A stretch of DNA of 64,000 bases from Sphingobacteriales bacterium 44-15 (GTDB taxonomy: Bacteria > Bacteroidota > Bacteroidia > Chitinophagales > Chitinophagaceae), in contig MKWG01000011.1 of NCBI GenBank assembly GCA_001899685.1, forward strand, positions 1 through 64,000, given 5' to 3'. Under the pieces are notes generated by a model that was not told the origin of the DNA, did not search any database, and saw only the letters and a program-made list of their open reading frames with translations. Positions 54,211 to 54,330 of this stretch are shown one piece after another (the first letter of the stretch is position 1; the number at the start of each line of letters is the position of its first letter). A program made the position numbers and the translations under genes.

Positions 54211-54330
54211 TGGTGTTACACCAGTGAACCTTTGGTAGCATACCAAAAATCAGTGGTAATATACAATAAATTCCTGGTAACGTACAGGCATAATTGGTTC
54301 GATACAGCAGAAAAGCATGGTAATTTCCCA
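54211..54330. promoter_or_regulatory. Array of six TGGTAnnnTACCA-like operators at about 21-bp spacing
   Basis: Sites start at 54211, 54233, 54254, 54275, 54295, 54318. Confidence 0.75.

What the first reader, a model, noticed from the sequence alone, without database searches (positions are those of the whole stretch)
54211..54330. Six phased operators (TGGTAnnnTACCA) between XRE and histidine kinase
Sites: TGGTGTTACACCA (54211), TGGTAGCATACCA (54233), TGGTAATATACAA (54254), TGGTAACGTACAG (54275), TGGTTCGATACAG (54295), TGGTAATTTCCCA (54318). Starts are 22, 21, 21, 20, 23 bp apart, i.e. two helical turns, with dyad quality decaying away from the XRE gene. This is what a cooperative repressor filament or graded switch would use.
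Basis: partly seen in the sequence, partly recalled or inferred. Interest (0 to 1): 0.82.

Follow-up and report, generated by a model that had tools for sequence, protein, structure and literature searches.

The report
Phased operator array of XRE regulator
A row of at least six matching 13-letter DNA sites, spaced two helix turns apart, lies between two back-to-back genes on a bacterial mobile island; comparison with dozens of relatives shows it travels with, and is almost certainly the landing strip of, the small DNA-binding regulator next door.

Summary
The six sites exist exactly where stated and are far beyond chance. They are the core of an array of six, probably eight, units (54211-54371) with spacing 22,21,21,20,23,(21,20), mean 21.17 bp (two turns). 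Relatives keep the array and its odd spacing: unit cores GGT/TAC are 92% invariant where spacers are 29%. In 6.0 Mb of this genome the tandem pair occurs only here. In 299 family genomes, every triple array that is not an obvious satellite lies directly upstream of a member of this XRE family. Distant members (<58% identity) show the same 13-mer and an excess of 19-23 bp pairs (12 against 0.53 expected). The array follows the XRE gene, not the histidine kinase. Best reading: the autoregulatory, divergent-promoter operator array of a Bacteroidota XRE regulator on a mobilizable island, bound by dimers stacked on one face of the DNA. Binding by this XRE is strongly inferred; cooperativity and filament formation are plausible but untested. 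The claimed decay of dyad quality is not conserved and fails once units 6-8 are counted. The kind is known (ImmR, Rco, lambda-type multi-operator repressors); the long, in-phase, spacing-constrained layout is a new variant.

The parts
54211..54330 (+). Core array: six 13-bp units at 54211, 54233, 54254, 54275, 54295, 54318 (consensus nGGTAnnnTACnn)
   Evidence: conserved with the same spacing in relatives
54339..54371 (+). Probable units 7 (54339, TTGTAAAGACCGT) and 8 (54359, TTGTAAAATACAA)
   Evidence: in phase (21, 20 bp); same spacing at the corresponding units of L002/L003 and near-same in L004, L006; weaker than units 1-6
54188..54195 (-). Predicted -7 box TATATTTG of the XRE promoter (TAnnTTTG); unit 1 starts 23 bp from it and covers the expected -33 region
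   Evidence: consensus from PMC7366714
53739..54188 (-). XRE (HTH_3) regulator, proposed array-binding protein; true start probably the conserved MPEK methionine at 54167
   Evidence: Pfam HTH_3; AlphaFold model: HTH 14-72, disordered linker, 38-residue C-terminal helix 111-148
54413..55408 (+). Divergent histidine kinase-like gene (HATPase_c; H-box SHEINTQLAG; no recognised sensor domain)
55443..56351 (+). NTase-HEPN-like protein, second gene of the divergent operon
   Evidence: Pfam HEPN; NTase part inferred from sequence; linked to this XRE family in 23 loci against 0.27 expected
56338..56619 (+). Small second XRE (93 aa) in the same operon
57563..59034 (-). Relaxase (57563-58618) and MobC/NikA-like gene (58615-59034) of the surrounding mobilizable island
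60052..61376 (-). Toprim primase-like gene and HTH_17 excisionase-like gene of the island
63568..64000 (-). 3' part of the tyrosine integrase gene (474 aa, continues to contig position 64992)

Best explanation
The array is the autoregulatory operator of the XRE protein encoded at 53739-54188. A dimer of its N-terminal helix-turn-helix domain binds each 13-bp unit (nGGTAnnnTACCn; inferred). Dimers on neighbouring units sit about 21.2 bp apart, hence on one face of the DNA, where their long C-terminal helices could hold one another (inferred). Filling unit 1 covers the -33 region of the XRE promoter and represses it; filling the far units represses the divergent kinase / NTase-HEPN / XRE operon (inferred). 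Multiple sites make a concentration-sensitive off switch for a mobilizable island. Shown: the array, its conservation, its link to this XRE family and to no other neighbour. Inferred: binding, repression, cooperativity.
For: Unit cores conserved (92% invariant) against spacers (29%) among L002/L006/L050/L015, and no shifted comb does as well (0 of 79). Spacing 22,21,21,20 recurs in L017 (XRE 59% identical); 22,21,20,23 in L016/L018; 22,36,21,20,23,21,20 in L002/L003. Distant members: 13 of 49 non-redundant upstreams hit by a PWM trained on window+L004 at 5% false positives (p=6e-7), 4 of 49 in the distal control; 12 pairs at 19-23 bp against 0.53 expected; outside the family, 4 against 0.13. 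De novo words in distant members: the promoter -7 word and GTAAnATAC, zero in control. Converse: in 299 genomes the non-satellite triple arrays are G000, G189, G163 and G102, all beside an XRE hit; the reversed-pattern control gives none. Dissociation: kinase loci lacking the XRE (L112, L119, L121, L122) have no array; XRE loci lacking a kinase hit (L114, L115, L117) do. HTH fold nearest C.BclI/C.AhdI and lambda/434 repressors.
Against: No binding or expression data. 36 of 49 distant members show no unit above the PWM threshold, so the motif drifts or is lost. Unit 5 (GGTTCGGTACGG) and unit 6 (TAATTT) keep letters beyond the dyad consensus, suggesting part of the array may do something else, e.g. 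hold the divergent promoter. The -33 element of the XRE promoter is poor (2 mismatches), and the divergent promoter is not identified with confidence.
Confidence: 0.8

Rival explanations
1. The units are bound by another protein of the divergent operon: a response regulator serving the kinase, or the small XRE at 56338.
For: The array lies directly upstream of the kinase operon; the small XRE is also an HTH protein.
Against: Arrays persist where the divergent gene is an NTase-HEPN without a kinase hit or a sigma-factor-like gene (L016, L017, L018), and are absent from kinase/NTase-HEPN loci without the XRE. Units occur upstream of XRE paralogs with unrelated neighbours (L043, L044).
Confidence: 0.06
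2. The units are iterons: a replication or transfer origin of the mobile island.
For: Directly repeated about 21-bp units on an island with relaxase and primase genes.
Against: The array follows one XRE gene across islands with different cargo and across paralogs away from relaxases; unit 1 sits at a fixed 23-24 bp from the XRE -7 box in most close relatives where the box is seen. No Rep gene was recognised among the neighbours scanned.
Confidence: 0.03
3. The units bind this XRE, but independently: several weak sites average occupancy, with no contact between dimers and no filament.
For: Some family members have one or two units, so a single unit can suffice; dyad strength varies unit by unit.
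Against: Irregular spacing is kept across lineages while spacer sequence is lost, which independent sites would not need; mean spacing matches two helical turns.
Confidence: 0.25
4. Units 5 and 6 are not operators but the core of the divergent promoter (TTGG ... TAATTT), with the operator array ending at unit 4.
For: Unit 6 keeps TAATTT while its GG varies, and the 23-bp distance is invariant in 14 loci; GTTCGGTAC recurs in other families (L190, L191, L195, L196).
Against: In most of these loci unit 6 still fits the dyad (TGGTAATTTACCA in L002, 5 of 5 pairs) and both stay in register with the array; neither matches TAnnTTTG well.
Confidence: 0.2

Closest known systems
ImmR of ICEBs1 (Bacillus subtilis); described in PMC4207663 and PMC6540685
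   Same: HTH repressor on an integrative element, divergent promoters about 130 bp apart, binds six regions, three near each promoter; represses its own gene and the transfer operon.
   Different: ImmR sites form two groups proximal to each promoter; no single in-phase run of this kind is described in the papers read; ImmR is cleaved by ImmA, and no Peptidase_M78-type gene was found among the neighbours scanned.
Rco of plasmid pLS20 (PMC4207663)
   Same: HTH regulator between divergent promoters, eleven motif copies (a1-a7, b1-b4), phase-dependent control of a transfer operon.
   Different: 8-bp motifs in two operators separated by a 75-bp loop, not all on one strand; here 13-bp units in one uninterrupted direct repeat.
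R-M controller (C) proteins such as C.AhdI, C.Esp1396I, C.BclI (PMC4321490)
   Same: Closest solved folds; operator GACTTATAGTC has the same 4-3-4 geometry as GGTAnnnTACC; small autoregulators with cooperative dimer pairs.
   Different: C-protein dimers lie about 4 bp apart on opposite sides of the helix, usually in pairs; here units lie two turns apart in runs of up to eight. No R-M genes recognised here.
Lambda/434 CI repressors
   Same: Same HTH family (434 repressor is the best PDB sequence match, E 0.003); multiple operators between divergent promoters; cooperative occupancy.
   Different: Two sets of three operators and a globular C-terminal oligomerization domain (from general knowledge); here one long run and a single C-terminal helix.

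Membership tests
XRE / HTH_3 transcriptional regulators | HTH_3 domain above the curated cut-off | tested here: met
   PF01381, 38 bits against cut-off 23; model has a five-helix HTH
XRE / HTH_3 transcriptional regulators | Palindromic operator upstream of own gene | tested here: met
   (presence and conservation); binding itself not tested
ImmR/ImmA-type ICE control module | ImmA-type metalloprotease (anti-repressor) gene beside the repressor | tested here: not met
   No Peptidase_M78-type hit among the ten neighbours scanned
ImmR/ImmA-type ICE control module | Repressor controls excision/transfer genes of an integrative element | not testable with these tools
   Relaxase, MobC-like, excisionase-like and integrase genes lie on the island but none is directly next to the array
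R-M controller (C) proteins | 4-3-4 quasi-palindromic site in a pair about 4 bp apart | tested here: not met
   4-3-4 geometry is met, but units are 7-10 bp apart and in runs
R-M controller (C) proteins | Linkage to restriction-modification genes | tested here: not met
   No R-M gene among the neighbours scanned
Iteron origin | Replication initiator gene next to the repeats | tested here: not met
   Neighbours are XRE, kinase-like and NTase-HEPN genes
Cooperative repressor array | Neighbouring dimers interact; occupancy depends on helical phase | not testable with these tools
   Only indirect: conserved phase and spacing

The most novel reading that the evidence does not exclude
A widespread, undescribed Bacteroidota XRE lineage builds a one-sided protein filament on a run of six to eight operators at fixed two-turn steps. 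Irregular spacings (20 and 23 bp around unit 5) mark a specialised central step, and the filament co-represses a sensorless kinase and an NTase-HEPN effector on mobile islands.
Probability: 0.25. Interest if true: 0.7.

Novelty: new variant of a known kind. Interest (0 to 1): 0.5.

Why it matters
It pairs a regulator family found in 120 of 299 sampled Chitinophagaceae genomes with its DNA code, so its targets can now be predicted. It offers a natural series of operator arrays (one to eight units, same protein family) for measuring how site number and helical phase set the sharpness of a genetic switch. Control of mobile islands in environmental Bacteroidota is little described in the open literature searched here.

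Tried and rejected
An unconstrained palindromic EM search drifted to a GC-rich background motif and was dropped; gapped-word counts and a PWM trained on two loci replaced it. An automatic chain with a 5-of-8 threshold added spurious units for L004 and L017 and mis-registered the window's units 7-8; units were then fixed by offset. A 21-bp minisatellite in G047 and an 18-bp repeat in G140 match the triple-array pattern but are simple tandem repeats and were set aside. An RNA element: no Rfam family in 53600-54600. A dyad centred between units (434-like ACAA-N-TGGT) was considered and rejected: the distance within a unit is fixed and the distance between units varies. PADLOC gave only generic HTH matches for the XRE. 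Literature searches for in-phase tandem XRE operators found nothing closer; the ImmR primary paper is not held. The 2025 survey of XRE motifs (PMC12565409) does not mention Bacteroid* or GGTA in its main text; its supplements were not readable.

Full report
Observation. The six units are exactly where reported. Runs of TGGT at 20-23 bp steps reach six only here in the window; simulations of 64 kb never exceeded three, and simulations of the 240-bp region never exceeded four. The tandem pattern GGTAnnnTAC-N9..13-GTAnnnTAC occurs nowhere else in the 6.0-Mb genome. Two weaker units extend the array to 54371; the eight starts fit 21.17 bp per step with residuals of about 1 bp or less, and phase coherence peaks near 10.6 bp per turn.

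Setting. The XRE gene (minus strand) and a kinase-like gene (plus strand) diverge from the array. The kinase gene is followed by an NTase-HEPN-like gene, a second small XRE and an unknown gene; then come a relaxase, a MobC-like gene, a toprim primase, an excisionase-like HTH_17 gene and, at the far end, a tyrosine integrase. This is a mobilizable island in a Chitinophagaceae-type genome (inferred from its relatives).

Conservation. Seven orthologs (63-73% identical) in Chitinophaga and [Flexibacter] carry the array. L004 keeps nearly the same layout; the L002 type has 15 bp more between units 2 and 3 and otherwise the same offsets. More distant XREs keep it too: L017 (59%) has 22,21,21,20; L016 and L018 have 22,21,20,23, as if one unit had been deleted. 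Among L002, L006, L050 and L015 the GGT/TAC core columns are 92% invariant, whole units 70%, spacers 29%, and none of 79 shifted combs does as well.

Which protein. The XRE family is present in 120 of 299 sampled genomes of the family, four copies in this one. In 49 non-redundant distant members (<58% identical), words enriched near the start codon are CAAATATA (reverse complement TATATTTG, the Bacteroidota -7 box; PMC7366714) and GTAAnATAC, neither seen in the distal control. A PWM trained only on the window and L004 finds a unit in 13 of 49 at a 5% false-positive rate (p = 6e-7) against 4 of 49 in the distal control. Pairs of relaxed units at 19-23 bp number 12 against 0.53 expected; outside the family, 4 against 0.13. 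Conversely, of the triple arrays in 299 genomes, G047 and G140 are simple tandem repeats and the other four (G000, G189, G163, G102) all lie beside an XRE hit (coordinates). Dissociation settles the partner: NTase-HEPN loci with a kinase but no XRE have no array, and loci with the XRE but no kinase hit have it. In L017 the gene across the array is sigma-factor-like by eye.

Protein. The model (mean pLDDT 77.6, 35 sequences) shows an HTH domain (residues 14-72), a short helix, a disordered linker and one 38-residue C-terminal helix. Nearest solved folds are R-M controller proteins and lambda/434 repressors. Controller operators share the 4-3-4 geometry but place dimers on opposite sides of the helix (PMC4321490).

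Mechanism. Unit 1 starts 23 bp from the -7 box of the XRE promoter, so a dimer there should block the -33 region; 23-24 bp recurs in most close relatives where the box is seen. Units towards the kinase gene should silence that operon. One-face stacking gives the C-terminal helices a way to touch; this is inference. ImmR (six regions) and Rco (eleven motifs, phase-dependent looping) show that such multi-site control of mobile elements exists.

Open points. The gradient of dyad quality is not real as a general rule: 5,5,4,3,2,4,1,5 here, other orders elsewhere. Unit 5 keeps GGTTCGGTACGG or a close variant, and GTTCGGTAC recurs in other families; unit 6 keeps TAATTT; the 23-bp step between them is invariant in 14 loci. 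That composite may hold the divergent promoter or a specialised operator; I could not decide. Units 7-8 are less certain than 1-6.

Verdict. Observation confirmed and extended; interpretation right about operators, unproven about cooperativity, wrong about the gradient. New variant of a known kind.

Noticed in passing
window 55443-56351 and loci: The fused NTase-HEPN-like protein is strongly linked to this XRE family: 23 of 106 NTase-HEPN hits lie within 5 kb of a listed XRE hit against 0.27 expected. Its NTase motif looks degenerate (D-F-L where DxD is expected).
   Followed up: partly
window 54413-55408: A kinase-like protein with an H-box and HATPase_c domain but no recognised sensor domain; no response regulator was seen among the neighbours scanned.
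   Followed up: no
L001 4733-7700: In [Flexibacter] sp. ATCC 35208 the XRE is followed by a SIR2-like gene and a HerA-type ATPase gene, resembling a SIR2-HerA defence pair.
   Followed up: partly
window 54295-54330 and L190, L191, L195, L196: GTTCGGTAC (unit 5) is kept letter by letter well beyond the operator dyad, also in other families, usually 20-25 bp from another unit; meaning unknown.
   Followed up: partly
window 54167-54188: The listed GTG start of the XRE gene overlaps its own predicted -7 box; the conserved MPEK methionine at 54167 is the likelier start.
   Followed up: partly
G189:C3:866255-866582 (L142): A perfect three-unit array stands next to a broken XRE copy (two in-frame stops), so the array can outlive its regulator.
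   Followed up: no
G047 (L145, L148-L152): A 21-bp minisatellite (GGTAAAGTACAAGTCTTACTG) imitates the array without any XRE hit in that genome.
   Followed up: no
window 62785-63492: AbiEii-like nucleotidyltransferase gene near the integrase end of the island (weak PADLOC match).
   Followed up: no
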